55,066 nucleotides of DNA from a virus. The position numbers were made by a program, and so were the translations under genes. The stretch is taken from the IMG/VR virus record IMGVR_UViG_3300046170_000069, positions 1-55,066 of that record; one strand, written 5' to 3'. Shown here in pieces: positions 21,046 through 51,116 of the stretch (positions within the stretch are counted from its first letter, which is position 1; each line of letters starts with the position of its first letter). Below the pieces are notes generated by a model. It saw only the letters and a program-made list of their open reading frames with translations. It did not search any database and was not told where the DNA came from.

Positions 21046-21903
21046 TTATTTACTATGATCTAAGTTTGTTGGTGAATACTCAACGTTTAGTGCGTATACC
21101 TCGAAGTCTTCCCTACCGAAGTCTACAATTACATCTGCAACCTGCCCCTTAGGAGCCTCTCCGTTCTGTTCTTTGTAACACAAGTATACTGGAGAGCCTA
21201 ACGTAAGAGTAACACCACCACCACTCGCTGATGGTAGCAATATACCACCCTTGTAAAACATAGGTATGCTTGGTGGGAATGTACCTAAGCCATGAAGAAT
21301 TGGATCTTCTTTGAATAACGCTGGATTATCTGTAACCTTAGGAGACTGAAAACTTCCTGCAGTATGCTCTTGCGCCTGAAGCTTAAGAAACACAGCGCTA
21401 GAAGGAATACCAAGCTCTTCAATCTCTTCCGCTGTAAATGCCAGACCAGCAGTCTTTTTGTCTTCAACTACCCCTACAAACTCTATGTTGGACATAGTGA
21501 TTCTGTTCTCTTGGCCGATGTGTCCGTATATAATACCACCACGCTCCGTAAGCTTACCGATAGTGGTTTCTTTAGGTACAACATTCTGACTTCCCTTGTT
21601 AGGTATAAAGAGATTAGATCCAGCTAAATTCGCTGGGTTAGCAGACTCAATTGAGAAAGCTTTGTATTGTTTGTTTACACTAGCAGCCTGACTAAAAGTA
21701 GCAGCAATAACAGAGTTGTAAAAAACTCCATAGAACTTGTTGTTGTCCTCCGATGATCCGTCATGCTTCCACACCACTTCTTTGGTTTCTGCTTCTGTTG
21801 GTGAGGTAACCATATGGTCTTTGATCCAGCCAATGCACGATGACACGAAGCTGTATCTTGTAGTCCAGTAGTTGCCTTTGTTGCTAAATGCTATTGTCTT
21901 CAT
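21046..21903 (-). CDS. Virion protein related to the tail hub region
   Basis: A 285-residue beta-rich protein. Its opening NKGNYWTTRYSFVSSCIGWI and WKHDGSSEDNNKFYG resemble the C-terminal part of crAss-like and P22 gp10-like tail hub (stabilisation) proteins, where such a segment is fused to the hub. Here it is a separate gene immediately downstream of the hub gene, overlapping by four bases. The hub function may be split between two polypeptides. Confidence 0.6.
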   Translation of the reverse strand: MKTIAFSNKGNYWTTRYSFVSSCIGWIKDHMVTSPTEAETKEVVWKHDGSSEDNNKFYGVFYNSVIAATFSQAASVNKQYKAFSIESANPANLAGSNLFIPNKGSQNVVPKETTIGKLTERGGIIYGHIGQENRITMSNIEFVGVVEDKKTAGLAFTAEEIEELGIPSSAVFLKLQAQEHTAGSFQSPKVTDNPALFKEDPILHGLGTFPPSIPMFYKGGILLPSASGGGVTLTLGSPVYLCYKEQNGEAPKGQVADVIVDFGREDFEVYALNVEYSPTNLDHSK

Positions 21904-24900
21904 TCTTCTGAATTAGTTCCAAATTGTGATAAAAATTCTAGTACATCTGAGATCCCAACCGAATCGTCACCGTCTATGTCTGCAACTGAATTGTTGCCTA
22001 CGTCACCAAACTCTTGGAGCAAGGTAAGTAAGTCTTGAGTTCCTACAGCGCCATCATTATTAATGTCCCCTGCAAGAGGCTGGCTGTTATCGGTAGGTAA
22101 TCCTTGAGGGCCAGCTGTCTCTGGGAATATCTCTGCGTTTATAGCCACTGTGTCAAAGAAGTAAGAGTTAGGTATCTCAAAACCTTCTGCATTAAATACT
22201 CTTGCTCTGGCTTCTGTGCTGTAAGCACGATCTTGAGGGCCACCACTTGTTGGAGGTAAAGCCTCTCTTTCGTTTCCAAGCATAAATAGGAAAGGTACAC
22301 CTCCTTGGAACTCAGCTGTAGGAGCATTAACTGGAGCGTCATTAGCGATACCAACAACATCAAAGAATACTGTCGAGTTAGGCTCTACTGGAACCATTTC
22401 ATCTATTGCAGGTGTTATGCTTTCAAACCAAGGATTTCTCTTCCATCCGTTACCAAACTGAGTCGGCCATTCAGCGAGAGGATCTAAGTCGTGATCATTA
22501 AATGGTTCGACTTTAACATACACAAGCTCATCGCTTACGTTAGAGAAAGGTATAGATACAGATGATGTAGATGTAGCTTCAGATCTTACCAGTCCAGTAA
22601 TTTCAACAGGTGCTCCAAATAAAGGCTCACCAATAGCACCCCAGTATTGCAGAGGAATGCCGCTGTCGTCTACTGGAATCTCTGATTCACCTTCGTTAAA
22701 GTCAATAACTTCACCTACATTGTACACGCTTAATAGGTATTCATCTTTGTCTGGATCGTAACCACCTACAACCTTAACCTTCTTGCCAGTATTCTCTACT
22801 TGTCTAAACAACTTTCTAAAGAAAGACTTCATGCCTGCTTCAGATATAACCTGAACACCGTTAGACGGATTAAACCTGTATACCTCTCTCGAACTCTTGT
22901 TGGCGAAGTAAACGTTGTTATCGATAGCGCAGACAGATTCAGGATTGTTGTCACATCCAGCATCTCCTGCATAGTACTTAATTGTACCTAAGACGTTTGA
23001 CGCAGCTACAAGTGACTGATCGTCTGATGCAGTAGTAATAATGTTTCTGCTTACTGGTACAGATGAAACCTTGTTCGACTGTATTACGAATGCAGAGTCC
23101 TGTTGATCCACAATGTAGTTAATACTACCATGCTCAACTGCCAAGTCTTTGAAGTGACCCTTAACAGGGTTGAACGAAGTAAGAACAAACACTGATGAAG
23201 CAGAGTTGTTTTTATCCGAGAAAGTTATTGAGGCTGTTCTTCTTACCTCTTGTGAGTCTGGAACAATTACCTTTACTTTACCCTTACCTGTTACATCAGC
23301 TCTTCTGACATTGTCGTTAAACGCTTGAGTTTCAAGCGAGTACGATTTAAAGTTAGACTCTGATTCATCACTTCCGATAAGACTGGTGAACACGCCATCA
23401 AACTTAGGCATGTTAACAGGAACCTTTCTCCACCATACGTCTCCGTCAGTCAGTGTGATTAACTCATTGTGCTGATCTATAGGGAATACGTTAGATGTTT
23501 CGTAGAAGAATAGTTCGTCTTCCTCAGCTACGTTCTTTGGAGAGAATATCTCTACAACTGTTCTCTTATTCCAGTTGTGACTCTGGGCGTTAACGTCGCC
23601 AGTACCAAGTAGTACATCCTCAAAGTTAAAACCATCTGCGTTCTTGTTGTTCTTGAGAACTATAAATGACCCCTGCTTAGCTTTGTGCGGAATAGAGTCA
23701 GTATCCTGCTCGTTATTCTCATCATACAATGGGTTGTCAGAAGTACCTCCAAGCTCTCTGTAATCTATAATCTCAAAGTCGTAACCTTCATTTAAGAACA
23801 CCCTACCTGACTGAGTATCTTCTCCAGTGTAGTAAGATATAACTCTTAGTATATCACCCTCTTTAAATGTGTACATGTCTCTTTCACCTTCTGGTGATCT
23901 GTTACCACCAGCGTCAGTGTAAGATATATTCTGATTACCCTGTAGGTGGTTAAGAGATACGTATATGTTACCGTTATCTTCGGCAGCATCTTCTGTTGCG
24001 ATGAACGCACCAGCAGTTGTGTACTGAACAAAGTCAGATATAGATGTGTTGCCTGAGTAAACGATCTGGAAAGACTCAGCAAAGTCTGGTGCTTGGTGAT
24101 TCATCTGAACCTCCATATTAATCTTTCCGTACTGGTTGTTAGATCTAGCGTAATACGGTGGAGCTAAGGCTGTTCCTAATGGGAATACATTACTTGCTCT
24201 ACCTCTTTGATCGTAGTACACTACACCGAAGGCGTGACTCGCACCGCTCTTGAACGATCTAAAACCTTCATCGTTCAGAAGTTCCATAAAGAAGGTAACA
24301 TTGTTAGCACCTGATGAAGAATGGTTAAGAGCTAATGAAGCATAACCAAAAATATCTGCCGTCTGATATGGCCCTAGCTGGAATGCGTTATCTCTAAGAA
24401 GAGGCATAGTCTCACTTGCATCGTTGTTGATGATGGTACCGCTTATGTTAGCTCCTAGTAAGTTACCATTCATCTTAGCTGAACCAAAGTTCGTTGCCCC
24501 AAAGAGTTGTGTGTTTTCGTTTACGAGGACTGGTAGAGTGTCGTAATCGCCTGATCCATCTTCCTTTCTTGGCCCACCAGCAGGACCGCCCTTACCATCC
24601 ATTAAAGAGAATCTAGACTTACCGTCAGCATTCTCTCCGCTGAAGAACAACCCTTGATGCTCTAACTGGCCTTGGAAAAACTGAAACACTTCTCCTGATT
24701 GGAAAGGCTCAGTCTTATCGAAACTGCTCAACACTGTTACTATTGGCTCAAACGGGCCTATAGGAATAACGTTTAGAGACGTCTGTAATGGAAGCTTCAT
24801 AACCTTCCAAGGACTGTTTGTAACCGCAGCTCTTAAGCATGTTGTTGCTGTAACGTTGTCTACACTCTTTATATATATACCTATTCTCCTCTTGTAAGCC

Positions 24901-27059
24901 TCGTTGTCATCATTATCCCAGCCTGAGCCTTCTCCGAAATATCTGTTTTCTCCTAGCTCTTGATTGTAAGCCTTGTCTTTAAAGAACCCAATCTCTACAT
25001 CTGCTTTCTCTACAATGAAACACCCTAGAAGTGAACCTTCATCTCCAGCCATAGTCTCTTTACCACACATCGTTATTAGCTTAGCTAATGGATCAGACAT
25101 GTTAAACTCTTGAAAGTTTTGTAGATTTAAATCGTAAGAGTATGTGTTGTTTATTTCATTTGTCAACACAGTGAAGGCTGTCTCTGGTGTACCTGCATCT
25201 AAGTCGTCACCAGTAATCAAATGAGCTATATAGTCTGTAATCTGATATCTCTGAAGTGGCTGGTTTGCTCGTATCTTAATTGATATAGTAACCTCTTCTC
25301 CCTTGAGTATCAGTGGGTTAGCAGCGCTTGTTCCGTAGATAGTGTCAGGGAATGACTGGCCTTGGACGGGCTTCCATTTAGCGTCTCCTACTCCATCATT
25401 GTCACAAACAGCAGGAAGAAATCCAGTGTTGTTACTAAACGTAGGAGCATCACTTGGGTTAGACCACCATCTGTTCTTATTGAAGTTTAATAATGGAACT
25501 TGAATTTCAAAATCCTCTAACTCACTATCTGCTGGACCAAAGAAGTCACCTAGTTGTTGGTGCTGGTGGTAAGAGTTCGATGAATCATACACATGCCAGT
25601 TTTGATCTGGAGTAATAGAGAATGACAAGTTAACTACATCGCCTGTAGAAATACCAACAGACGGTATGTCTGACGGATCTAAAACAAAAGCAGCGTTCTT
25701 GTTAAGTGTAGGATCTACTGGAGTTCCTTCACTAGGGTAACCATCAGATTCAAAGTCGCTAATCGTTTCATCACTCACGCAGGTTGCAGGAAGTATCTTG
25801 ATTTCATAGTTTGTGAAGTCTAGAGTTCTTTCCTGAGCAACAGGAGTAATGACAGCATCAGTAACAACCTCATCGAATCCTTCTACGTAGTTACCGTATA
25901 GCAGTCTGTTGTTGATAATAGACTGAGCCTCAGCACGTTTAGGAAGATTATCGAATTGTTTTGTCTGGTTGTCTGTTGATACAATCTTGTTTACCGTATC
26001 ATTTCTAAAATCAAACGTAAGCTCTGTAGCTATACCTAATCCCGACGGATTGCCTGCAAGGATATCTTGTGTCCCTTCTACAACGCCCAATAATGTAAGA
26101 GCTGCTGGATCTGTGCTGAGTTCTGTAATTTCAAAGAACTGACCGTCGTTACCTCTTCGAGCTAGTATCTTTACTTTTTCTACCTCAAACGACATATCTT
26201 CGATAGGTATCGTAAGCCTACATACGTTGTGCTGGTTTAGTTGAAGAGGCTGTTCGCTTGCTCCGTGTGTAATATATGTTGGTGGTACTGCTATATCAGA
26301 TATAGTAGACATAGCACTAACGTTTCTATCTCTGTAAACTAACTGATAGGCAAACTGAAAACCATTGATGTTTCTGAACTCACTGTATGGAAGTGATTCA
26401 TCAGCAACGAACTCAAACGCAATAGGGAATGCAGGCGCCTTAGGACACGCTGTAATGAAGTCTTTTAACGATTTGGTACCTAGCCCATACTGGTTTACTG
26501 TTTGGTCGTAATACGCTCTTAAAACGTTTAGTTTCCTAGGCTCATTCCTATTGTCCGTAAAGAACAACATAGGAGCGTCTTCGTATGTCTTATTTGTTGT
26601 CGGAACAAAAGGATCATTAGGGTCAGAGAACGTATACGTGCGCTTAGTTTGCACATACGTTAAGTCACCCTTAACAAATCCTTCTGGATCAAAGTTAAAC
26701 TCCTGAGTAGTGTATAGCTTTATAACCTCATCAAGAGGGTGACCTACAAAGTATCCGTTAGGGTCGTAAGCATAGACACCCATTGCGTTATCTGCAGTAC
26801 AATGCACAAACAGATATAGCACTTCGTTCTTTTCATCTGCGACCTTACCAATAACTGTTGAGCTACCAGCTCCTTCAAACGCAATACCTGATATATCTAC
26901 GTTACTCTTAATAGGTTTGAGAACGCCTTCGTTTCCATTATCGCCATCACGGTTATCATGGCTTATAGAAACATTAAGGGCATCAGACATTTCGTCTTTG
27001 CCCCTAACCTTTGAGTCCGAATTTGAACTTAGTCTTCTAGGGAGTATCTTATCAATCAT
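21900..27059 (-). CDS. Large tail hub/muzzle-type protein with C-terminal dockerin repeats
   Basis: A 1719-residue protein. Its start (DKILPRRLSSNSDSKVRGKD, then MSDALNVSISHDN) matches the tail hub or stabilisation (muzzle) proteins of crAss-like phages, which close the portal and hold tail fibres. The body is beta-rich. The last 55 residues hold two dockerin-type calcium loops: D1665-x-N-x-D (DINNDGAVGTQD) and D1694-x-D-x-D (DIDGDDSVGISD), each followed by a helix ending in EFG/QFG. Dockerins normally dock to cohesins. Here they could attach a tail fibre or bind a host surface protein. One-base and four-base overlaps link it to neighbouring tail genes. Confidence 0.75.
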   Translation of the reverse strand: MIDKILPRRLSSNSDSKVRGKDEMSDALNVSISHDNRDGDNGNEGVLKPIKSNVDISGIAFEGAGSSTVIGKVADEKNEVLYLFVHCTADNAMGVYAYDPNGYFVGHPLDEVIKLYTTQEFNFDPEGFVKGDLTYVQTKRTYTFSDPNDPFVPTTNKTYEDAPMLFFTDNRNEPRKLNVLRAYYDQTVNQYGLGTKSLKDFITACPKAPAFPIAFEFVADESLPYSEFRNINGFQFAYQLVYRDRNVSAMSTISDIAVPPTYITHGASEQPLQLNQHNVCRLTIPIEDMSFEVEKVKILARRGNDGQFFEITELSTDPAALTLLGVVEGTQDILAGNPSGLGIATELTFDFRNDTVNKIVSTDNQTKQFDNLPKRAEAQSIINNRLLYGNYVEGFDEVVTDAVITPVAQERTLDFTNYEIKILPATCVSDETISDFESDGYPSEGTPVDPTLNKNAAFVLDPSDIPSVGISTGDVVNLSFSITPDQNWHVYDSSNSYHQHQQLGDFFGPADSELEDFEIQVPLLNFNKNRWWSNPSDAPTFSNNTGFLPAVCDNDGVGDAKWKPVQGQSFPDTIYGTSAANPLILKGEEVTISIKIRANQPLQRYQITDYIAHLITGDDLDAGTPETAFTVLTNEINNTYSYDLNLQNFQEFNMSDPLAKLITMCGKETMAGDEGSLLGCFIVEKADVEIGFFKDKAYNQELGENRYFGEGSGWDNDDNEAYKRRIGIYIKSVDNVTATTCLRAAVTNSPWKVMKLPLQTSLNVIPIGPFEPIVTVLSSFDKTEPFQSGEVFQFFQGQLEHQGLFFSGENADGKSRFSLMDGKGGPAGGPRKEDGSGDYDTLPVLVNENTQLFGATNFGSAKMNGNLLGANISGTIINNDASETMPLLRDNAFQLGPYQTADIFGYASLALNHSSSGANNVTFFMELLNDEGFRSFKSGASHAFGVVYYDQRGRASNVFPLGTALAPPYYARSNNQYGKINMEVQMNHQAPDFAESFQIVYSGNTSISDFVQYTTAGAFIATEDAAEDNGNIYVSLNHLQGNQNISYTDAGGNRSPEGERDMYTFKEGDILRVISYYTGEDTQSGRVFLNEGYDFEIIDYRELGGTSDNPLYDENNEQDTDSIPHKAKQGSFIVLKNNKNADGFNFEDVLLGTGDVNAQSHNWNKRTVVEIFSPKNVAEEDELFFYETSNVFPIDQHNELITLTDGDVWWRKVPVNMPKFDGVFTSLIGSDESESNFKSYSLETQAFNDNVRRADVTGKGKVKVIVPDSQEVRRTASITFSDKNNSASSVFVLTSFNPVKGHFKDLAVEHGSINYIVDQQDSAFVIQSNKVSSVPVSRNIITTASDDQSLVAASNVLGTIKYYAGDAGCDNNPESVCAIDNNVYFANKSSREVYRFNPSNGVQVISEAGMKSFFRKLFRQVENTGKKVKVVGGYDPDKDEYLLSVYNVGEVIDFNEGESEIPVDDSGIPLQYWGAIGEPLFGAPVEITGLVRSEATSTSSVSIPFSNVSDELVYVKVEPFNDHDLDPLAEWPTQFGNGWKRNPWFESITPAIDEMVPVEPNSTVFFDVVGIANDAPVNAPTAEFQGGVPFLFMLGNEREALPPTSGGPQDRAYSTEARARVFNAEGFEIPNSYFFDTVAINAEIFPETAGPQGLPTDNSQPLAGDINNDGAVGTQDLLTLLQEFGDVGNNSVADIDGDDSVGISDVLEFLSQFGTNSEE

Positions 27060-36346: not shown

Positions 36347-36657
36347 TACCACTTAACTTTATCAGCCCACCATGCAGCAGACATTTTACCTCTCTTTATA
36401 TTCTTAGCGTGTCTAGCCTTGAAGCTTTTGCGTTTTGCTTTCATACGTGCAGACTCTCCAGCTTTAGGCTTCCCAGCCGTGCCTTTTACAGTACCGACCT
36501 TTTTACCTTGCTGTCCGAATCTAATCAGTTTAATCTTATCGCCTTCCTTAGCTACAACTACGTGTGACTTCGTTGGGTGATTAGGTGTACGTTTGGCTCT
36601 GTTGTAACCGCTTACTCCAGCTCTAGCTAATCTAGGATCTTTTTTCTTTGCTTTCAT
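36346..36657 (-). CDS. Conserved basic phage protein
   Basis: A 103-residue very basic protein. Its parts KKKDPRLARAGVSGYNRAKR, SHVVVAKEG and FKARHAKNIKRGKMSAAWWA are a strong pattern that I recall in many phages including cyanophages and crAss relatives. Its function is unknown; charge and location suggest a packaged DNA-binding protein. Coupled by one-base overlaps on both sides. Confidence 0.75.
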   Translation of the reverse strand: MKAKKKDPRLARAGVSGYNRAKRTPNHPTKSHVVVAKEGDKIKLIRFGQQGKKVGTVKGTAGKPKAGESARMKAKRKSFKARHAKNIKRGKMSAAWWADKVKW

Positions 36658-36995
36658 TAGAACCAGCTTATAAGTATTTCATCCACAGCGCTTTGTACCT
36701 CTTCCCGTGAAGTTTCTAACTGCATCATAATATTCCCCTGAAATCTTTCTACCTCCTCTCCGTCGTTAAAGATTATGACAGTAGGCACTACAACAATCTT
36801 ATGTTCTTGCTGAAGATCAGGGCTTGCAAGTATGTCTACTCTTTTACCTTTGCAATCAGACAACTCCTCAATCCAGTCTACACTATTAACTTTATTAAAT
36901 GGTGCGTTGAACTCAACAACACAGATGCCATTTTGCGGTATAGAACCAGCAAAAGACAGCATAGAAAATAAAGATATATAGAGTGCTGCCTTCAT
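36657..36995 (-). CDS. Secreted thioredoxin-fold protein lacking the CxxC
   Basis: A 112-residue protein. Residues 1-17 form a Sec signal peptide (ALYISLFSMLSFAG). The rest follows a thioredoxin fold: CVVEFNAPFN (25-34) matches the strand before the active site, and VVVPTVIIFNDGEEVERFQG (68-87) holds the cis-proline P71. The CGPC is replaced by FNKV, so it cannot act as a redox enzyme. It may be a periplasmic chaperone or binding protein. It is the first element of the envelope-directed block upstream of the mini-protein cluster. Confidence 0.7.
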   Translation of the reverse strand: MKAALYISLFSMLSFAGSIPQNGICVVEFNAPFNKVNSVDWIEELSDCKGKRVDILASPDLQQEHKIVVVPTVIIFNDGEEVERFQGNIMMQLETSREEVQSAVDEILISWF

Positions 36996-37279
36996 TACTT
37001 TAGTTTATCTATTTTTTCCTCAATACGAGTAAGATCACTCTTTAGTTCTGAAACATCCTCTTGCGTCGTCATAATAGTTTGACGAATCAATTGGTCTTTC
37101 ATATCAAACTCCATGCGAGTTACATCTGGCGGTAATGGCTCTGGTAATTCTTTAGCTAAAGCTATGTCTGCTTGAAGAGCAAACCACATCCCAATAAGGG
37201 CTGCTAGCCCTGCTGCACCCAGCCCTATTGTTTTAAGGTCTAGGGTTACTTTAGTATCTTCTCCAATTTGTTGAGCCAT
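36995..37279 (-). CDS. Membrane-anchored coiled-coil protein
   Basis: A 94-residue protein with one hydrophobic segment (about 18-41, LGAAGLAALIGMWFALQADI), a short Pro-rich hinge, and a C-terminal coiled coil (about 60-94, DVSELKSDLTRIEEKIDKLK). It resembles small inner-membrane or spanin-like proteins in outline only. One-base overlaps join it to the thioredoxin-like and barrel genes. Confidence 0.65.
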   Translation of the reverse strand: MAQQIGEDTKVTLDLKTIGLGAAGLAALIGMWFALQADIALAKELPEPLPPDVTRMEFDMKDQLIRQTIMTTQEDVSELKSDLTRIEEKIDKLK

Positions 37280-38349
37280 CAGTATAATTGATAATTTAGT
37301 CCTACAGAAAAGTCATGCCATTCACGGTTCCAGTATCTGTTATACTTTCCCTCTAAGAAAACGCCAAGACTCTTGTTTAATCTCCAGCCAAAGATAAGGC
37401 CAAATCCATAATCGATCCATTGCTCGTCACCAGTCGTCTGGAAGTACGAGTACTCACCGCCTGTGTTCAAGTGGTAGGGCATAACACTAGCCCAGCTGTG
37501 TGTCCAGAAATCCTTAGTGTAATGGTAGAAATCATACCCCACGACCAAAGAGTAGTTCCACTGATCTGGCAGTTCGTTTCTCTTTTTATTTGTGTAGTCT
37601 CTCAGAACCTCTGGTATCACCACCTGCTCCCATACATCGATGCTGTTCGCTACTAAGGTACCGTCTGGAGCAAAGTACTCACCCTGCTGTACATCTATAG
37701 TGTACCCTTCTTCAATAGCTAGATTAGTGTAGTGTAGATTACCGTTAAACAATAGCCAATCCTCAAGAGGATCGTAACCGTAAGGCTCTGATATTCTTTC
37801 AGCCACACCGATGTTCAAGCTAAACTTCTTGTTGATGTTTAGTCTGTATCTCTGTGAAGCCTCGAAGTATCTTACGTCTGCGAAACCATCCTGTAAGTAT
37901 TCAGTCTTTACAATCCAGTGCTTCGCTACGTATCTAAGAAAGTAGTCTTGATCTAAGAACTCTCTACCTTGTTGTCTTCTCCAATCAGCTTCGAATAAAA
38001 ACTCAAAACCATTAATTCTACCTATAGTTGCTGCGTCACTGTAAGATCTTTCTGTACCGTCGTAGAATACGTTTGCACGGTTTTCATATCCGAATCTAGC
38101 TATCTTTCGTACACCAGCAGTTATAGAGTAGTCGAATGGAGTCTCCATTATGTCGGTTTGTAACCCGCCGATAACAGAATAAATCTTATCATCAGCTACA
38201 GAGTTACCACCACTGACAGCAGTGTAGAATGTAGCACCTCTGAAAACTTTCTTTAATGATTGACCTTTAGCTTGAGTTGACCCTAGCAGAAAAACTACCA
38301 GCATCAATAGAGCATACACAACTGCAGTTAAGTCCTTCTTCTCTGTCAT
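37279..38349 (-). CDS. Outer-membrane beta-barrel-type protein
   Basis: A 356-residue protein. Residues 1-29 look like a signal peptide (VVYALLMLVVFLLGSTQAKG). The rest alternates aromatic and polar strands (YSITAGVRKIARF, FLFEADWRR, WNYSLVVGYDFYHY). The last strand ends aromatic (FSVGLNYQLY), as in outer-membrane barrels recognised by the BAM machine. A phage-made barrel in the host outer membrane could replace or mask a receptor. Alternative: a beta-rich structural protein with an uncleaved anchor. Confidence 0.65.
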   Translation of the reverse strand: MTEKKDLTAVVYALLMLVVFLLGSTQAKGQSLKKVFRGATFYTAVSGGNSVADDKIYSVIGGLQTDIMETPFDYSITAGVRKIARFGYENRANVFYDGTERSYSDAATIGRINGFEFLFEADWRRQQGREFLDQDYFLRYVAKHWIVKTEYLQDGFADVRYFEASQRYRLNINKKFSLNIGVAERISEPYGYDPLEDWLLFNGNLHYTNLAIEEGYTIDVQQGEYFAPDGTLVANSIDVWEQVVIPEVLRDYTNKKRNELPDQWNYSLVVGYDFYHYTKDFWTHSWASVMPYHLNTGGEYSYFQTTGDEQWIDYGFGLIFGWRLNKSLGVFLEGKYNRYWNREWHDFSVGLNYQLY

Positions 38350-38522
38350 TAGATTTCAAATCCGAAGTTGAAGACCATAAGTCTAAACTTCTTATTAGTA
38401 CATCCTTCTTCGCAGAATAGGCAAGCCTTAACTTCAAGTACAGTAACAGTACCTAGTCTAAGGTTAAGTTCGTACTTGCTCTTTTTGTTTGTAGCCTTCC
38501 AGCTGTTTATCCAATTAATCAT
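38349..38522 (-). CDS. Small protein of unknown function
   Basis: A 57-residue protein, basic and beta-rich, with a pair of cysteines in ACLFCEEGC. Start and stop overlap both neighbours (ATGA and TAATG), so it is a genuine member of the coupled envelope block. No family recognised. Confidence 0.6.
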   Translation of the reverse strand: MINWINSWKATNKKSKYELNLRLGTVTVLEVKACLFCEEGCTNKKFRLMVFNFGFEI

Positions 38523-40747
38523 GATTTGATAATTTTTTGGTTGATAATAATTCCGTTATATAATACAATAACCTCGTACACTCCGTTAGGGAGCTCTCTG
38601 AGGTCGATAATAGTTTCTCTAGTGTCAGCTACTACAAGTTGACCAAATGCGTTGTAAACTCTTGTAATAGACCCCTGTGGCGCCTGTATGTTTAAGAAGC
38701 TGTTTGTTGGGTTAGGGTAGATAGCAAAGTCTCTAACGTTGTCAGTAGGTATTCCTAATGGCCATCCTTGATTGCAGTAGTCATATAAACTAACACACGA
38801 ACCATCCCATTCAACCTCACAGCAGTAAGCGTCTATTTCGATAACCCAAGCAAAGCAAGAGTCGTTTAACCAGTAACCGTCTCCGTATGGTTCTCCTAGT
38901 CCAGTAACACAGTCCTCAGCTTCGTACAAACAATTCTCGTTATCTGCTACATTAGCTAGTGGATCAAAGTTGTATGCATCTAAGTCCATACATCCTGCTA
39001 CTGGATCAATGCAATTTCCGTTATCGGTATTAGCGTTCTCATCGTAGTTAAGTGCTAGTGGATCCATACATCCGTAGATGTATTCAATACAGCTACCGTT
39101 GTCTGTATTGGCGCTAGGATCGTAGTTAAACATCGTAGGATCAGTACACCCAAACGCTACTTCAATACACTCACCTGCATCAGTAGCAGTAGCGTCGTAG
39201 TTGAAAGCGGTCGGGTCTTGACAGCCTACTACCTCTAGCTCATCACAGATACCGTCACCATCAGTATCGTTGATACAATGATTCATACAGTCATAGTATT
39301 GTACAGGGTATGTACACTCAGTATTCGTGTTAGCTTCTTCGTCGTAATCACAAGCTACTGGATCAGTACATCCGTAGATGTGAGGAATACACCCATCTCC
39401 ACAGAATGGAGTGAAGTGGTATATCGTCCACTCTGGAGTAGAGAATGGTTGTAGTGCGCTTTGTCCGTTGTTAATGAATGGATTATCACCTTCCGTTAGA
39501 AGCGTGTCACCGTTTTCATTCAGGACAAGTATAGAGTTGTGAAGAGTCTGGAAAGCAAGCTCCTGTGGAGACTGCTGCTGAGTACCAGCTTGGAAGTAGT
39601 ATACGTCAACCTCTTCATCAGAGTCTAGCGTTAGCTCCCACGTATGAGAGAACTCATTAGGGCTTACACTGAATAACCACTGCTGATCGCCTTGCACCAT
39701 GCCGATAGTAGATGCTCCCCATCCGTCACCAGCGTCATCCTCAAGTATAATCTCAAGAGTACAAGGACTGTCGTAGTCAGCTATAGTAGCAAGACTATCG
39801 TAGTTCAAGGCTGTTGGATCTACACATCCCCAAGTATGCAATGTCATACAAGTGTCTTGAATAGTAGCAAGTGGGTTATAATCTACGTAGTCGTCATCCA
39901 TACAGCCAACCACATCTGGATCTGGCTCACATGGTTCAGTGAAGATAGGACCAGAGTACATAACGATACCATCCCATTCCTCAAACGCTAAGTCCTCAAG
40001 CTCCCATAGAATGCTATCGCATGAAGTAATTACACATGCTCCATCCTGACCGCCTGACGCAGAACCATTTAGTCCATCACCGAATAAGTCGTATAGGATT
40101 AACTCAAAGCCTAGCTCCACACAAAAATCATAAGTGTATGTCAGCATCTGATCGCCGAAGTTGTACTCGTTAACAAGCACCTCGTGATAAGGCTGTCCAG
40201 TTGATAGGTTTACTAGCGTGAATCCAGTTTCGTTAGGCCATGTATCAAGAGTAAGCTCCATAGTTACTAGAGCCTGATCCTCATTACACGATACAACATT
40301 ACAACTTCCGTTATCTATGTTAGCCCATGGATTGAAGTTGTTAGCTAAATCATTCGTACATCCGAACACAGGGACTTCGCAAGGCTCAAGAGTAAAGTCA
40401 ACTGTATCTGCAGCTGTGTTAAACTCAAAGTTTGCTTCGTACAATCCGCAGAAGTTCTTCAGCTCGTAGTTACCCTCACCGAACTCACAACATATACCGT
40501 CACCAAAAACATCACTAATGATGAAAGTGTAATCACCTGCTGGTAAGAAGACTGGTGTAGTTAGATATTGATTAGGCTGATACTGTGGGCTTGTTACAAG
40601 AACACTATCGTCTTGCATAATGACCCAAGAAGTTTCATTTGGATATTGATCAGCCTGTACAGCTACATCTAGCCAGCTACCTTGACCTAAAGCTGAGGTT
40701 AATGTAAATAAAGATAAAAGGTTGGTAATAAGTAATTTACGAATCAT
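38519..40747 (-). CDS. Secreted repeat protein with type IX secretion (T9SS) sorting domain
   Basis: A 742-residue exported protein. A signal peptide (1-21, LLSLFTLTSALG) is followed by repeated beta domains containing VFGDGICC and DDAGDGWG. About eight cysteine repeats of the type GC-x-DP-x-A-x-NYD-x-x-AN-x-DNG-x-C lie near residues 127, 281, 306, 457, 506, 531, 556 and 584. One DTDGDGICDE calcium loop is present. The C-terminal 70 residues (FAIYPNPTNSFLNI ... NAFGQLV ... ELPNGVYEVIV ... KIIKS) are a type A T9SS sorting domain. The host would export it through Sec and T9SS to the cell surface. Probably captured from a marine Bacteroidota genome. Confidence 0.9.
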   Translation of the reverse strand: MIRKLLITNLLSLFTLTSALGQGSWLDVAVQADQYPNETSWVIMQDDSVLVTSPQYQPNQYLTTPVFLPAGDYTFIISDVFGDGICCEFGEGNYELKNFCGLYEANFEFNTAADTVDFTLEPCEVPVFGCTNDLANNFNPWANIDNGSCNVVSCNEDQALVTMELTLDTWPNETGFTLVNLSTGQPYHEVLVNEYNFGDQMLTYTYDFCVELGFELILYDLFGDGLNGSASGGQDGACVITSCDSILWELEDLAFEEWDGIVMYSGPIFTEPCEPDPDVVGCMDDDYVDYNPLATIQDTCMTLHTWGCVDPTALNYDSLATIADYDSPCTLEIILEDDAGDGWGASTIGMVQGDQQWLFSVSPNEFSHTWELTLDSDEEVDVYYFQAGTQQQSPQELAFQTLHNSILVLNENGDTLLTEGDNPFINNGQSALQPFSTPEWTIYHFTPFCGDGCIPHIYGCTDPVACDYDEEANTNTECTYPVQYYDCMNHCINDTDGDGICDELEVVGCQDPTAFNYDATATDAGECIEVAFGCTDPTMFNYDPSANTDNGSCIEYIYGCMDPLALNYDENANTDNGNCIDPVAGCMDLDAYNFDPLANVADNENCLYEAEDCVTGLGEPYGDGYWLNDSCFAWVIEIDAYCCEVEWDGSCVSLYDYCNQGWPLGIPTDNVRDFAIYPNPTNSFLNIQAPQGSITRVYNAFGQLVVADTRETIIDLRELPNGVYEVIVLYNGIIINQKIIKS

Positions 40748-40901: not shown

Positions 40902-41351
40902 TTAAACGTTACTAGCGTCGCTATTAATTACAAAGCTTCCAGTAAGTATAGTTGTTGCTTTGTTAGCAGAGTCTACATTGTTAGCAGCGTTTGTATCAAC
41001 GTACTGAATATCATACTTGTATCTACCGCTATCTACAGCTTTCATATCTGCAGCAGAAGCTTCAAACTTTACGATACCAGTAGCATCACTTGATGTAGTA
41101 TCTGATGTGTCAGTTATAGAAACTGATATCTCAGCCAGTCTATCTGCAGACTCTTCGAGCCCATCAGTAGCTAGTGCAACTACAGCTGGGTTAGCTTTTG
41201 TTACCAGCATAAAGAATGTAGCTTCATTACCACCGTGAAGATTAATAGCGCTACCGCTTGAATCCTTCAATGTTAATGTTAAGCTAAAAGAATCACCTCG
41301 TCTGCATGTGATGTCAAGATTCTTTGATATGTCTAAGTTTACTCTAGCCAT
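40902..41351 (-). CDS. Virion protein resembling BppU-type N-terminal domains
   Basis: A 149-residue beta protein. CRRGDSFSLTLTLKDSSGSA followed by strands containing FFMLV and SGRYKYDIQYVD resembles the baseplate/upper-fibre (BppU-like) domains of phages. It overlaps the portal gene by one base, suggesting a head-tail structural role. Confidence 0.55.
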   Translation of the reverse strand: MARVNLDISKNLDITCRRGDSFSLTLTLKDSSGSAINLHGGNEATFFMLVTKANPAVVALATDGLEESADRLAEISVSITDTSDTTSSDATGIVKFEASAADMKAVDSGRYKYDIQYVDTNAANNVDSANKATTILTGSFVINSDASNV

Positions 41352-43804
41352 TATTGTTCTAATATATCTTCGATTATTTTTTCAGCGGTTTCGTTAGACT
41401 CATTCTCTAACTCACCTCTTTTTCCCTGTCTTTGAGATATTAGCTTGCTTTGTTCTTTAGCTTGCTTTTTAACTCTATTGTCTTTTCTATCCTCTTTTAG
41501 CACCTCAATCTTTTCTTTGAACTCTTGATCATCAGTCTTAAATCCTAATGTAGCCTGCGCTCTGATCATTTCAATCTCCTTTTGTAACTGATGACGAGCC
41601 TGAGCAACCTGAATATCTAGCTGAGCTTTCATCTGTAGCTTTTGAGCTTCTATCTGAGCCTCCATTTGCATCTCTTGCTGTCTAGCTTGAGAGGCCGCCT
41701 GAGAAGCTTGTTGAGCTTGCTGCGATTGAACTTGAGAGTTTTGCATAGCTTGATCCTGCATTCTCTTTATTCTCTTCTTACGTCTTACCACAAGAAGTCT
41801 TTCAGCTTGATTTATATCCTTAAGGTTTCTGATGGCAATAGCATCTTCAATATCTAGCTCTTTCTGTTGCAAGGCTATTTGAATATTCTGCTCCAGATAC
41901 GCCTTCTCTTTATCTTCCATCTCCTTCTGTACAGTGACACCGAAGTTAAACATTGGTAGGTCACTGAAAGAACTTAGAACATTCATATTAGATTCACCAA
42001 TAGCGTTTTGGTAGATCTTCATTAGTACTGAGTTAGGTGGTATAATCTGCAAACACTTAACGATGTCAGAGCAAACCTTCTTGAACAGAATCATAGATGC
42101 ATTTGTAATATCATATATAGCATTGTTACCTGCAGCAATAGCCTGTTCTCTAACACCAACAAGTGCATCACCCTTAGGAGTAGATGCATCCATCGCTTCG
42201 TTAATTCCTGTAGTATCTCTGATAAGTCTCAGGTAGTGATTGTAGATACCAATAAGCTCATTGATATTACGGATGCTGTTTCCTATTTCACGTACAGGTG
42301 GGTTTTGGAAACCTCCTTCTGGGTTCTTACTTCTGTAGTAGAATACACCTGTCTGCTCGTAGATGTCGTGTAACTCTAACGGTTGTAACTCACCACCCTT
42401 ACCGAGCTGGACATTCTCTAGTCCTTCAATGTCAATGATAAGTCCATCAGGCTTTGCTTTAGCGATTGCTTGCTGAAGCTTCAGGTGTGTGATCTGCAGC
42501 ATATCTGCAAAACCTATACAGCTATCTACCATAGACTTAGGCATCATGTTTCTGAAGTTCGTTGCGACTACAGAATACCCTAATCTAGTTCTACCTATGT
42601 CGTGCATATTTCTAGGCACATTAGTCTTAAGGCCGTAGTTAAACAGCTTCTTAGCACCTAGCACATACATGCCTCCGTACACAGTTTCAATATCCATGCG
42701 GTGAGGCTTTCTTTCGAACACGCCTCCAGTCTTCTCCTTGTAATTAAACCCCTCATAAAAGAAGTTTACATTACCGTATCTATTTTCTTTTTCTTCAAAG
42801 TGCATACAGTCAACAGAGATAAACTCGAAGTCTAGTACTTCAATTCTATACTCATCATAACCATATGAACTTCTATTGTTTACAGAGTCGTGATGAGTTC
42901 TATAAAAATTAGACGTATCCTGAGACTTACTTCTTGCTGCTTCTATTGCAATACTCTTGTACTCCTCTTCTGTAAACTTATCTCCTGCAATACGCTTAAG
43001 TTCAAGAATAGTCATATTTTTAATATGACCTGCATATACCAAATCCCCAAAGCTTGGATCTTCTGTGTAGCTATGAACGAATGTAGCTGGATCAACGTAG
43101 TCTGTCTTGATTCCGTAGCTAGGATCGTTTGTTCTTCTAGTAACACATATACCAATATCTACTAAGTCCTTTACGTTTCTTCTGTAGATGCTATCAGTAA
43201 AGTTGTTCCAAGATAGAGTTAAGTTTGTACCAATCTGAGCTGCAATCTCAGCGTCAGTTTTAATGTTGGTGTCTAAAAAGATATCCGCTTCCTCTAATGT
43301 ATCGGGCAACTTGTCTGGATCTTCATCTAGTACAAGGCCTCCAGTCTCCTGCTTTAGATCCATAAGATCTTCTTTTACAGCAACTTGAGTTTTAATTCGC
43401 TGCTTCTCTTTGTTCTTTTCAGAAGATGAAAGAGGATCGATAGCCTCAAGGTTTGGATATGGGTTGCGAGACAAGATCTTGTTTGTAACGACTCGAGCAA
43501 ACTTAGGAAGGATAGGTACTGGAGTGAAATCCAAATTAACTAAACTACCGTCTGCGTTGTTCGCATCAAGGTTCGTTAAGATCTGCTTATAGATGTTTGT
43601 ATCTTGAGTTCCGTTAGCGTAATCTCTATTCCTATCGAATATCTTATTACGCTTACTAATCATAGAACTAGCATTATGTCTTGTACCCCACTGTGACTCA
43701 ATGGCTTTTGCATATTGCAGTCCGTAAGCTTCTTGAGACTTGGCTTGCTGTGGTGCAAGCGCATCAGGGAAGCCTGACTTTTTCTTATTACTATTATACA
43801 TCAA
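41351..43804 (-). CDS. Portal protein (crAss-like)
   Basis: An 817-residue protein. It is large for a portal, with a long Gln/Ala/Lys-rich coiled coil (about 660-780, QMEAQIEAQKLQMKAQLDIQ) and an acidic tail. Sequences such as YGLKTNVPRNMHDIGRTRLG and the LRLIRDTTGINEAMDASTPK region are typical of portals from crAss-like and marine Bacteroidota phages. It forms the ring at one capsid vertex through which DNA is packaged. It follows the terminase gene by 38 bases and has its own promoter box. Confidence 0.8.
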   Translation of the reverse strand: MMYNSNKKKSGFPDALAPQQAKSQEAYGLQYAKAIESQWGTRHNASSMISKRNKIFDRNRDYANGTQDTNIYKQILTNLDANNADGSLVNLDFTPVPILPKFARVVTNKILSRNPYPNLEAIDPLSSSEKNKEKQRIKTQVAVKEDLMDLKQETGGLVLDEDPDKLPDTLEEADIFLDTNIKTDAEIAAQIGTNLTLSWNNFTDSIYRRNVKDLVDIGICVTRRTNDPSYGIKTDYVDPATFVHSYTEDPSFGDLVYAGHIKNMTILELKRIAGDKFTEEEYKSIAIEAARSKSQDTSNFYRTHHDSVNNRSSYGYDEYRIEVLDFEFISVDCMHFEEKENRYGNVNFFYEGFNYKEKTGGVFERKPHRMDIETVYGGMYVLGAKKLFNYGLKTNVPRNMHDIGRTRLGYSVVATNFRNMMPKSMVDSCIGFADMLQITHLKLQQAIAKAKPDGLIIDIEGLENVQLGKGGELQPLELHDIYEQTGVFYYRSKNPEGGFQNPPVREIGNSIRNINELIGIYNHYLRLIRDTTGINEAMDASTPKGDALVGVREQAIAAGNNAIYDITNASMILFKKVCSDIVKCLQIIPPNSVLMKIYQNAIGESNMNVLSSFSDLPMFNFGVTVQKEMEDKEKAYLEQNIQIALQQKELDIEDAIAIRNLKDINQAERLLVVRRKKRIKRMQDQAMQNSQVQSQQAQQASQAASQARQQEMQMEAQIEAQKLQMKAQLDIQVAQARHQLQKEIEMIRAQATLGFKTDDQEFKEKIEVLKEDRKDNRVKKQAKEQSKLISQRQGKRGELENESNETAEKIIEDILEQ

Positions 43805-45969: not shown

Positions 45970-47802
<1,833 letters not shown>

Positions 47803-48066: not shown

Positions 48067-48654
48067 TTATTCAATTATATACATTAGGTCGACTGCACGA
48101 GTTCTGAAGTACTCCTTACCGTCTATTTTTATTCTGTAGTCTCTGTTCTGTTTGAAGCCTACGATATCTCCCTGCTTCACTCCCATCTCCTTAGCTTCTT
48201 CACAAAGGTAAGCTACTTTCGCTGTGGTTGGTAATTTTTCCTCAAGAGAAACAACTTCGATAATACCCTTCTCTTCTTCCTCTTCTTCTATAGCTTCTAG
48301 AAGGCACCATCCAGCTAGGCATCTGATCTTACCATCCTTCTTGCTTTTGTAGGCGATAGCTTGGTTGCTTAACGCTACGTCTGGATCGTAGCTTACAACG
48401 AAGTGCTTGTCGTTACCTGTAAGCTTCTGTCCTTCGTTTAGTACAACTAGGTGGTGGAAGTATAGCTCGTCACCAACCTCTACCCCAGTATTATATCTAT
48501 AAGGTGGGGATACCACAGGCCCTGATGTTACCCTGTTAGGGAACTGACCATTTTCGAATCTAGTGTCTATATATAGATTAAGACCTGAGTCAGTCTCTAT
48601 CGTGTCGTTGATCTGCTTTTCCAGTTCAACAACGAATACATGTAAAGCTTTCAT
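48067..48654 (-). CDS. GroES-like co-chaperonin
   Basis: A 195-residue protein that looks like a divergent GroES. VEVGDELYFHHLVV (58-71) resembles the beta-barrel core, and the C-terminal quarter has VKQGDIVGFKQNRDYRIKID and RTRAVDLMYIIE, like the final strands of GroES and T4 gp31. It is twice as long as GroES (about 95), so it may contain two linked barrel halves or an inserted domain; an acidic Glu run (EEEEEEK) lies between. It would cap the phage GroEL encoded downstream, as T4 gp31 replaces GroES. Confidence 0.7.
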   Translation of the reverse strand: MKALHVFVVELEKQINDTIETDSGLNLYIDTRFENGQFPNRVTSGPVVSPPYRYNTGVEVGDELYFHHLVVLNEGQKLTGNDKHFVVSYDPDVALSNQAIAYKSKKDGKIRCLAGWCLLEAIEEEEEEKGIIEVVSLEEKLPTTAKVAYLCEEAKEMGVKQGDIVGFKQNRDYRIKIDGKEYFRTRAVDLMYIIE

Positions 48655-49821: not shown

Positions 49822-50601
49822 TTAAGGTGTTGTTGAGCTGAATGCAACTGTTCCCTGAGCGCTTCCGTTACTTGTTCCAGCAGTATCTGTAAGATCGTCT
49901 TCGAATCTGTAGTATAACTCTAGTCCGTCATGGCCGCTTTCATCTTTCGGAGTACCGCTATTGTAGATGTCTGACACCTCACTAGCGGAAAGGGCTTTAG
50001 TGAAAGCAGCGAATTCATCAATTAAACCATCGAATCCACCAGAAAGACCCCAAGTTCCAGTGTTTAGAGAGGTACCATCAATACCCATCTCTATTCCACT
50101 AGAGGCAAACTGATTTGCGTTAGCTACACTCACCTTAAAGCCTGCTAAATAGGTGTGAGCAGCAGCAGATCCGTTTACGTAGAAGGTGATCTCTACGTTA
50201 GACCCACTGTAGTCTTGCACTATAGCAATGTGCGTGAAGTCTGATTGAGCTCCATCAGAAAATACCGCACTGTTAGTGCTTGGTATTGATATGTTTCCAA
50301 TTCCAGTTCCGTTTGAGTACAACCACATCGTTAGTATCCCTGCGGTTGTTATGTTCAGGAAGGAAAAATCGGCAGATCCAGCATTAACACCAAATACTAT
50401 CTGTGCTTGGGAGGGTATTCCATCATCAGGCTTAAGCCACATGCTGAAACTGTGAGAGCCTCTAAGTAGAGTCTGTGGATCGTAGTTTGTGTTAACACCA
50501 TTAGAATTCGATAAATCACCATCTAAAGACTTCGTATTCGAATACGGTGCTGCGCTCTGTACGTATGGTAGTGTTGATATGCTGTTTCCTAATCCTAACA
50601 T
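49822..50601 (-). CDS. LamG/concanavalin-type lectin-like protein
   Basis: A 259-residue protein. HSFSMWLKPDDG, HIAIVQDYSG, FYVNGSAAA and GGFDGLIDEFAAFTKALSAS are the standard strand motifs of LamG jelly rolls, and the tail LELYYRFEDDLTDTAGTSN is likewise typical. It likely binds glycans, as a fibre tip or secreted factor. The start is placed at 50601; a 16-residue upstream extension lies inside the DUF5675-like gene. Second such domain in the phage after the one at 29600. Confidence 0.7.
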   Translation of the reverse strand: MLGLGNSISTLPYVQSAAPYSNTKSLDGDLSNSNGVNTNYDPQTLLRGSHSFSMWLKPDDGIPSQAQIVFGVNAGSADFSFLNITTAGILTMWLYSNGTGIGNISIPSTNSAVFSDGAQSDFTHIAIVQDYSGSNVEITFYVNGSAAAHTYLAGFKVSVANANQFASSGIEMGIDGTSLNTGTWGLSGGFDGLIDEFAAFTKALSASEVSDIYNSGTPKDESGHDGLELYYRFEDDLTDTAGTSNGSAQGTVAFSSTTP

Positions 50602-51116
50602 TCTCCTTGTATAAATTCTTTTAGTTGAATCGGTGATACAAGTAAACACTCAGCTAGATCTCTGTACTCTATCGTTACCTCCTCACCAGCTTCTAGTGCT
50701 GCGGCAATCGGTGGGTACACTCTCATATATGCTGCTGTGCTCTTCCCTATAAAACCGTTTTTTTTGATGTTGTTGTTTTCTTGCGTGTCACCCAGTAGTA
50801 AGCACCCTGCAGTGTCCTCATCAGTATTACCGCAGTGAAGAAGAATATATTCAAAGTTTGGCACATCCAAGACATGAAGCATGCCTTTATGTATGTCAGC
50901 AAATCTCTTACTGTATTTGGCGTGATATCCACCCACAGTTCGAAAGCCGATACGATACTCTCCTTCAGGTATGCAAGTTTCTCCGTAAACTTTTTCCTTG
51001 CGACTTTCGTCTTCCAAGGTGTAGCAAAGAAATCTTCTTTCATCATTAGTTATGTCGAAGAGTATTCCGTTAGTGGAATCCTTTCCTTTGTTGATTCTTA
51101 TTACTTCGAGTTTCAT
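50595..51116 (-). CDS. DUF5675-like protein (YkuD-related fold)
   Basis: A 173-residue protein with the family pattern CYTLEDESRKEKVYGETCIP-EGEY, then GMLHVLDVPNFEYILLHCGN-TDEDTAGC. That layout (H-x-G-N ... T-x-G-C) is close to L,D-transpeptidase (YkuD) active sites and is common in Bacteroidota phages and prophages. It may act on peptidoglycan during lysis or entry. Family function is not established. It overlaps the LamG gene by seven bases. Confidence 0.7.
   Translation of the reverse strand: MKLEVIRINKGKDSTNGILFDITNDERRFLCYTLEDESRKEKVYGETCIPEGEYRIGFRTVGGYHAKYSKRFADIHKGMLHVLDVPNFEYILLHCGNTDEDTAGCLLLGDTQENNNIKKNGFIGKSTAAYMRVYPPIAAALEAGEEVTIEYRDLAECLLVSPIQLKEFIQGEC

What the first reader, a model, noticed from the sequence alone, without database searches (positions are those of the whole stretch)
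38519..40747. Phage gene encoding a type IX secretion system cargo
A 742-residue late-operon protein has a Sec signal peptide, about eight cysteine repeats of the GC-x-DP-x-A-x-NYD type, and a C-terminal T9SS type A sorting domain (YPNPTNSFLNI ... LPNGVYEVIV). A phage that sends one of its own proteins to the host cell surface through T9SS would be an unusual strategy, for example receptor masking, superinfection exclusion or holding infected cells together. It might alternatively be a recently captured host gene.
Basis: partly seen in the sequence, partly recalled or inferred. Interest (0 to 1): 0.92.

Follow-up and report, generated by a model that had tools for sequence, protein, structure and literature searches.

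The report
Phage module using host surface secretion
A widespread but uncultured group of apparently marine bacterial viruses carries a conserved four-gene set whose largest protein bears the address tag of the host's own type IX secretion system, so the virus probably decorates the infected cell's surface, perhaps to shut out rival viruses.

Summary
The predicted fold of that domain matches T9SS cargo domains solved inside the translocon. It is not a recent capture. IMG/VR gave 121 distinct complete relatives, 119 with the sorting domain. The only full-length relatives in GTDB genomes lie on phage-like contigs binned into MAGs.

The larger finding is that the cargo is one part of a four-gene phage module: cargo (C), a predicted 12-stranded outer-membrane barrel (O), a one-TM protein (M) and an exported thioredoxin whose CxxC is always NxxN (T). 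Of 86 distinct barrel loci found without using the cargo, 83 have C and 86 have M and T. The module occurs in phages with different backbones.

The sorting domain co-varies with the barrel, not with the cargo body, and cargo-less phages have a sharply different barrel. I infer that host T9SS exports the cargo and the phage barrel receives or anchors it. Receptor shielding is the likeliest purpose, but untested. A 2020 paper is precedent for phage T9SS cargo, not for this module.

The parts
38519..40747 (-). CARGO: 742-aa exported Cys-rich protein with T9SS type A sorting domain
40685..40747 (-). signal peptide of the cargo (aa 1-21), Gln at mature +1 (Bacteroidetes Q-rule)
   Evidence: Q22 invariant in 27 aligned relatives; Q-rule described in PMC5837995 and PMC10653852
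40382..40681 (-). predicted beta-sandwich domain 1 of cargo (aa 23-122)
   Evidence: AlphaFold secondary structure
39938..40276 (-). predicted beta-sandwich domain 2 of cargo (aa 158-270)
39398..39763 (-). predicted beta-sandwich domain 3 of cargo (aa 329-450), partly low confidence
38918..39385 (-). chain of five of the eight Cys repeats (aa 455-610); the other three start near aa 129, 281 and 307
38768..38917 (-). terminal Cys-rich helical segment (aa 611-660, ..DPYCCEV.WD..C..Y.YC)
   Evidence: invariant Cys/Trp; low-confidence fold
38525..38722 (-). T9SS type A sorting domain (CTD, aa 676-741)
37279..38349 (-). OMP356: exported protein predicted to be a 12-stranded outer-membrane beta-barrel, cognate partner gene of the cargo
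36995..37279 (-). TM94: small one-TM protein with a conserved predicted coiled-coil C-terminal part
36657..36995 (-). TrxL: exported thioredoxin-fold protein with NxxN in place of CxxC
41351..43804 (-). portal gene, upstream neighbour; shows that this is a tailed phage
   Evidence: phrog_6547, 668.7 bits
43843..45966 (-). terminase large subunit gene
   Evidence: phrog_6681, 689.8 bits
31816..33234 (-). capsid-cluster gene (phrog_13704, putative major capsid protein) on the far side of the module; in elemo phages it follows portal and the phrog_16786 gene directly

Best explanation
This is the cargo gene of a mobile phage module that acts in the host cell envelope. Step 1 (strong inference): the 742-aa protein is made from the late/structural gene cluster, exported by Sec, cleaved before Gln22, and carried across the outer membrane by the host's T9SS through its type A sorting domain. 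Step 2 (moderate inference): the adjacent phage barrel OMP356 inserts into the outer membrane and is the dedicated acceptor or anchor of that sorting domain, in the way SprF/PorP-like barrels hold their cognate type B cargo. Step 3 (weak inference): TM94 in the inner membrane and the NxxN thioredoxin in the periplasm complete an envelope-spanning set, perhaps as chaperone or coupling parts. Step 4 (weak inference, about 0.4): the displayed Cys-repeat/beta-sandwich protein shields or remodels the surface during late infection, so that superinfecting phages and released progeny do not adsorb to the infected cell. My confidence is about 0.85 that it is a genuine T9SS cargo, 0.65 for a functional cargo-barrel pair, and 0.4 for the shielding role.
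For: Sorting domain. Signal peptide with invariant Gln. Retention: 119 of 121 distinct complete relatives keep the sorting domain. It is swapped for another one rather than lost: 143 pairs have body >75% and CTD <50% identical, 54 pairs have body <50% and CTD >70% identical. Module: of 86 distinct barrel loci found without using the cargo, 83 have the cargo and all 86 have TM94 and TrxL; gene orders are cyclic rotations of one order. Cargo-barrel link: CTD identity follows barrel identity (r=0.77), not body identity (r=0.38); partial correlation 0.73, 0 of 500 permutations; also in the order where the CTD end does not touch the barrel gene (r=0.86, n=14). Cargo-less phages form one OMP clade with OMPs only about 39% identical to the others, while their TM94 and TrxL are as similar as usual. 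Different backbones: podo-like portal phrog_6547 and one contig with a contractile-tail sheath gene, which argues against a fitted virion part. Low dN/dS for body, barrel and TM94 (0.06-0.09). Receptor context: sprA, gldK, gldM and gldN mutants of Flavobacterium columnare are phage-resistant (PMC9233685); T9SS-exported SprB and RemA may be phage receptors in Cellulophaga (PMC13288928).
Against: No experiment shows secretion. The barrel does not match PorP/SprF or PorV families, it is modelled with 12 rather than 14 strands, and the model is of medium confidence (pLDDT 68.6). Type A CTDs normally use the host's PorV (PMC12618676), so a phage shuttle is not strictly needed. In most genomes CTD and barrel genes touch, so linkage explains part of their co-variation, and the separated set is small and related (n=14). 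Three complete loci lack the cargo but keep the rest, so the core module does not need it. Nothing directly links the module to superinfection exclusion. The CTD dN/dS is high (0.44), though unreliable because of swapping and short length.
Confidence: 0.6

Rival explanations
1. Outer-envelope lysis or release module: TM94, the periplasmic thioredoxin and the barrel breach the outer membrane at the end of infection (in place of spanins), and the cargo loosens the surface.
For: The set spans inner membrane, periplasm, outer membrane and surface; it lies among late structural genes in the window; the core OMP+TM94+TrxL persists when the cargo is lost.
Against: Cultured relatives with the same portal family lack T9SS cargo and TrxL, so lysis in this group does not need it. 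In the large contig L063/G045 the module follows helicase and ribonucleotide reductase genes. A T9SS tag is not obviously useful for lysis.
Confidence: 0.18
2. T9SS jamming: the cargo and barrel occupy the SprA translocon or the attachment site, so that host T9SS adhesins that serve as phage receptors are no longer renewed.
For: T9SS mutants of flavobacteria are phage-resistant. The CTD resembles cargo domains trapped in the translocon. The exported dead thioredoxin could interfere with disulfide-linked T9SS parts, since SprF and PorG are disulfide-bonded to GldK (PMC12635249).
Against: The CTD looks ordinary and is exchanged with other ordinary CTDs, not frozen as an inhibitor would be; the large conserved body would be unnecessary.
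Confidence: 0.15
3. Auxiliary nutrition: surface binding protein plus porin supply the infected cell with a glycan or other nutrient.
For: The barrel's best PDB fold matches are the oligosaccharide porins NanC and KdgM; weak matches of the cargo to surface glycan-binding proteins.
Against: No enzyme or known binding domain in the cargo. NanC/KdgM are simply 12-stranded barrels, and the cargo matches are below any useful TM-score. TM94 and the dead thioredoxin have no role in this.
Confidence: 0.1
4. Virion component: the cargo is a fibre or decoration protein picked up at the cell surface.
For: Lies in the structural gene cluster in the window; beta-sandwich and repeat architecture resembles fibres.
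Against: A Sec signal peptide removes it from the cytoplasm where virions assemble; the same module serves phages with different morphogenesis genes.
Confidence: 0.07
5. Recently captured host gene with no phage function.
For: The domain types (Cys repeats, Q-rule signal peptide, T9SS CTD) are of Bacteroidota style.
Against: 121 distinct complete phage homologues; in GTDB genomes only two full-length relatives, both on contigs that carry the whole phage module; OMP absent from 394 of 395 Bacteroidia genomes sampled, the exception being that phage contig; purifying selection.
Confidence: 0.03

Closest known systems
Cryophage T9SS-tagged cargo genes (PMC7468147, 2020)
   Same: Phage genome encoding proteins with T9SS type A sorting domains, proposed to use the host system; the authors also suggest superinfection exclusion.
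   Different: Those are variable single genes (endoglucanase, GH39, PA14 protein) in one phage population. No conserved partner genes are described in the passages read. The present family is different and is part of a fixed four-gene set in many phages.
SprB-SprF / PG1035-PorP pairs: T9SS cargo with a cognate outer-membrane barrel encoded downstream (PMC9143113, PMC12618676)
   Same: Cargo gene directly followed by the gene of an outer-membrane barrel; each cargo relies on its own barrel (compare here).
   Different: Those are bacterial, use type B CTDs (TIGR04131) and 14-stranded FadL-like barrels. Here the CTD is type A, the barrel is modelled with 12 strands and has no PorP/SprF match, and the genes belong to phages.
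PorV-dependent type A T9SS cargo such as NucA and FspA (8glk, 8glj), gingipains
   Same: Sorting-domain sequence and predicted fold.
   Different: Bacterial cargo; to my knowledge without a private barrel gene.
T5 Llp-type superinfection exclusion (phage surface protein blocking its receptor; from general knowledge)
   Same: Proposed outcome: a phage protein at the outer membrane prevents adsorption.
   Different: Llp is a small lipoprotein that needs no secretion system; no homology.
Small T9SS-tagged ORF in the 634-kb huge phage LR745206
   Same: Signal peptide with Gln and a TIGR04183 domain (42.1 bits).
   Different: 199 aa, unrelated body, no module recognised beside it.

Membership tests
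T9SS type A cargo (TIGR04183 / PF18962) | C-terminal sorting domain above curated cut-off at the extreme C-terminus | tested here: met
   33 vs 23 bits, aa 676-741 of 742; PF18962 32.3 vs 27
T9SS type A cargo (TIGR04183 / PF18962) | Seven-stranded Ig-like CTD fold | tested here: met
   Seven strands at aa 675-741, pLDDT about 80; Foldseek to 8glk_D and 8glj_D, probability 1.00, TM 0.75, rmsd 2.3-2.4
[quoted passage not shown]
   Hydrophobic N-terminus with invariant Q22; 113 of 121 relatives pass a simple hydrophobicity/Q test; no dedicated signal-peptide predictor was available
T9SS type A cargo (TIGR04183 / PF18962) | Secretion depends on SprA/PorV of the host | not testable with these tools
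   needs an experiment
Type B CTD cargo (TIGR04131) | Match to TIGR04131 | tested here: not met
   no match at E<=1
PorP/SprF-like shuttle (for OMP356) | Match to a PorP/SprF family model | tested here: not met
   26 members scanned against Pfam and NCBIfam, no such match
PorP/SprF-like shuttle (for OMP356) | Outer-membrane barrel gene directly beside its cargo gene | tested here: met
PorP/SprF-like shuttle (for OMP356) | 14-stranded FadL-like barrel | tested here: not met
   12 strands in the model; best fold matches NanC/KdgM; medium-confidence model
Catalytic thioredoxin (for TrxL) | CxxC active site | tested here: not met
   NxxN in 152 of 152 distinct proteins, CxxC in none; fold relation to thioredoxins E 1.7e-7
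Superinfection exclusion system | Blocks adsorption or entry of a second phage | not testable with these tools
   no functional data

The most novel reading that the evidence does not exclude
Hundreds of uncultured phages of T9SS-bearing Bacteroidota carry a mobile four-part envelope machine (surface cargo, private outer-membrane barrel, inactive periplasmic thioredoxin, inner-membrane protein) that reroutes the host's T9SS to rebuild the surface of the infected cell: the first phage system built on T9SS with its own cargo receptor, and a new route to superinfection exclusion.
Probability: 0.4. Interest if true: 0.92.

Novelty: new variant of a known kind. Interest (0 to 1): 0.8.

Why it matters
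T9SS-dependent surface proteins are candidate phage receptors and resistance targets in flavobacteria. A conserved phage module that feeds its own cargo into that system, together with a private barrel, would be a new way for phages to control the surface of the infected cell and would give a natural probe of T9SS sorting rules. It also gives testable partners to four unknown genes, three of which (barrel, TrxL, TM94) have more than 500 relatives each in IMG/VR; no member of the module was detected in cultured phages by the searches here.

Tried and rejected
Recent host capture: rejected. PorP/SprF membership of the barrel: no match. Catalytic thioredoxin for cargo disulfides: rejected, both active-site Cys are replaced by Asn in every copy. 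Homologues in cultured phages: none for cargo, barrel or TM94; TrxL found only ordinary thioredoxins at weak E-values. Cultured portal relatives (elemo, phi38:1, phi18:3, Gundel_1) and the metagenome-derived ctfjg026 have no TIGR04183 match. A viral-structure match for the barrel (A0A516LKJ4, E 4.7e-23) could not be traced to a record. Whole-chain fold matches of the cargo body (otoferlin, laminin and others) have TM-scores near 0.1 and were discarded. The CTD dN/dS is reported but not relied on. A first TIGR04183 batch failed for exceeding 50 loci and was rerun. No complex prediction of cargo CTD with barrel could be run.

Full report
What is there. The window is the whole of a 55,066-base IMG/VR virus record. 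The ORF of the finding lies on the minus strand (40747..38519, 742 aa). The same contig carries a terminase large subunit, portal and capsid-cluster genes. Its closest cultured relatives by portal are Flavobacterium elemo phages and Cellulophaga phages at about 30% identity. The protein has a signal peptide ending ..LGQ, eight GC-x-D..NYD..C repeats, 37 cysteines and a C-terminal sorting domain that passes TIGR04183 (33 vs 23 bits) and PF18962 (32.3 vs 27 bits) and no type B profile. AlphaFold gives three beta-sandwich domains, the repeat chain, a Cys-rich helical segment and a seven-stranded C-terminal domain (mean pLDDT 70, pTM 0.30, so the arrangement of domains is unknown). The C-terminal domain superposes on the CTDs of NucA and FspA solved in the T9SS translocon (8glk_D, 8glj_D; probability 1.00, TM 0.75), and the family profile also reaches these and, weakly, gingipain CTDs by sequence.

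It is a phage family, not a captured gene. A scan of IMG/VR found 84 stretches encoding relatives, most of them full length, at 32-99% identity. After further scans there were 121 distinct complete cargo proteins, 119 with the sorting domain; the two exceptions end in a shorter, degenerate version. The Gln at the predicted mature N-terminus is invariant in the alignment, as the Bacteroidetes Q-rule for signal peptidase I substrates predicts (PMC5837995, PMC10653852). The GTDB genome collection gave only two full-length relatives. Both lie on contigs that carry the entire module; one has a phage-family DNA polymerase, DnaB helicase and ribonucleotide reductase and is 43 kb long, the other has the window's small structural-cluster genes (b133). 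The barrel was absent from 394 of 395 Bacteroidia genomes sampled, the exception being that same phage contig. These two MAGs have 42 and 15 TIGR04183 matches, so the putative host groups own a T9SS; the host link through binning is weak.

Four genes travel together. Downstream of the cargo lie OMP356, TM94 and TrxL (37279-38349, 36995-37279 and 36657-36995, all minus). Among 86 distinct barrel loci with enough flank, found by scans that did not use the cargo, 83 have the cargo and all 86 have TM94 and TrxL. Over all 100 such loci the orders are COMT (82, including four with a second T9SS-tagged gene), OMTC (12), MTCO (3) and OMT (3): cyclic rotations of one order. These scans keep only the best 80 hits each, so rarer arrangements among distant relatives may have been missed. 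The module occurs in phages with the portal family of the window and in a 122-kb contig with a contractile-tail sheath gene, where it follows helicase and ribonucleotide reductase genes. In elemo phages the portal gene is followed directly by the phrog_16786 and phrog_13704 genes; in the window the module lies between the portal gene and those two genes. Whether the module was gained in one lineage or lost in the other is not shown.

The parts. OMP356 has a signal sequence and is modelled as a 12-stranded barrel; the top PDB fold matches are outer-membrane barrels, best NanC (E 1.1e-6), and neither Pfam nor NCBIfam gives a PorP/SprF match for any of 26 members. TrxL is thioredoxin-like by profile (E 1.7e-7), keeps the cis-proline motif, and has Asn at both active-site cysteine positions in all 152 distinct copies, so it should not be a disulfide catalyst of the usual kind. 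TM94 has one hydrophobic segment and a very conserved C-terminal stretch. Median dN/dS is 0.08 for the cargo body, 0.06 for the barrel, 0.09 for TM94 and 0.16 for TrxL, so these genes are under purifying selection.

Why I link cargo and barrel. First, phages without the cargo form a single barrel clade with full support and a very long branch; their barrels are about 39% identical to the others, which are at least 55% identical among themselves, while their TM94 and TrxL are as similar as within the main group. Only three complete loci support this. Second, the sorting domain has a history apart from the body of its own protein: 143 pairs have bodies over 75% and CTDs under 50% identical, 54 pairs have bodies under 50% and CTDs over 70% identical, one of them with 47% body and 100% CTD identity. 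Third, CTD identity follows barrel identity (r 0.77; partial 0.73 given body; 0 of 500 permutations), including in the OMTC order where the CTD end is not next to the barrel gene (r 0.86 against 0.64 for body-barrel; n=14, related sequences). Linkage explains part of this in the COMT order. The simplest reading is a variable payload (the body) exchanged between a fixed signal peptide and a CTD matched to the barrel, as in bacterial type B cargo with SprF/PorP-like barrels (PMC9143113, PMC12618676).

Function. Shown here by computation: module structure, phage confinement, sorting domain, barrel fold class, loss of the thioredoxin active site. Inferred: export by the host T9SS, anchoring by the barrel, and the purpose. 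T9SS and gliding mutants of F. columnare arise under phage attack and are resistant (PMC9233685), and the T9SS-exported adhesins SprB and RemA may be receptors in Cellulophaga (PMC13288928). A phage that adds its own T9SS cargo late in infection could shield or replace these receptors. Lysis, T9SS jamming, nutrition and a virion role are weighed as rivals.

Novelty. Phage-encoded T9SS cargo was proposed in 2020 for Cryophage (PMC7468147), and a 634-kb huge phage has an unrelated small one. I found no description of the four-gene module, of a phage barrel paired with a T9SS cargo, or of the NxxN thioredoxin in the papers searched; the library holds open-licence papers only.

Noticed in passing
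L041, L043, L046, L055, L067 (between cargo and OMP genes): A second, shorter T9SS-tagged exported protein (411-521 aa) sits directly after the cargo in one lineage.
   Followed up: partly
L187:2614-3213 (LR745206, 634-kb huge phage): A 199-aa ORF with signal peptide, Gln at the cleavage site and a TIGR04183 domain at 42.1 bits: an independent phage T9SS cargo.
   Followed up: partly
window 21900-27059 (-): The 1719-aa virion structural protein ends in two dockerin-like calcium-loop repeats (Dockerin_1 14.9 bits, below cut-off).
   Followed up: no
window 45970-47517 and 48067-48654 (-): Phage-encoded GroEL-like chaperonin next to the terminase gene and a Cpn10-like (GroES) protein; elemo phages also carry GroEL/GroES genes.
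   Followed up: partly
window 49822-50649 and 50595-51116 (-): A Laminin_G_3 (ConA-like lectin) protein gene overlaps the end of a DUF5675 gene.
   Followed up: no
all module loci, e.g. L004, L083, window: Gene orders COMT, OMTC and MTCO are cyclic rotations of one order, as expected from tandem duplication and deletion or circular intermediates.
   Followed up: partly
OMP356 (window 37279-38349), model m7c0a808f579a: BFVD entry A0A516LKJ4 (342 aa) matches the whole barrel fold (E 4.7e-23, 22% identity) although tblastn finds nothing in INPHARED; its phage is unidentified.
   Followed up: partly
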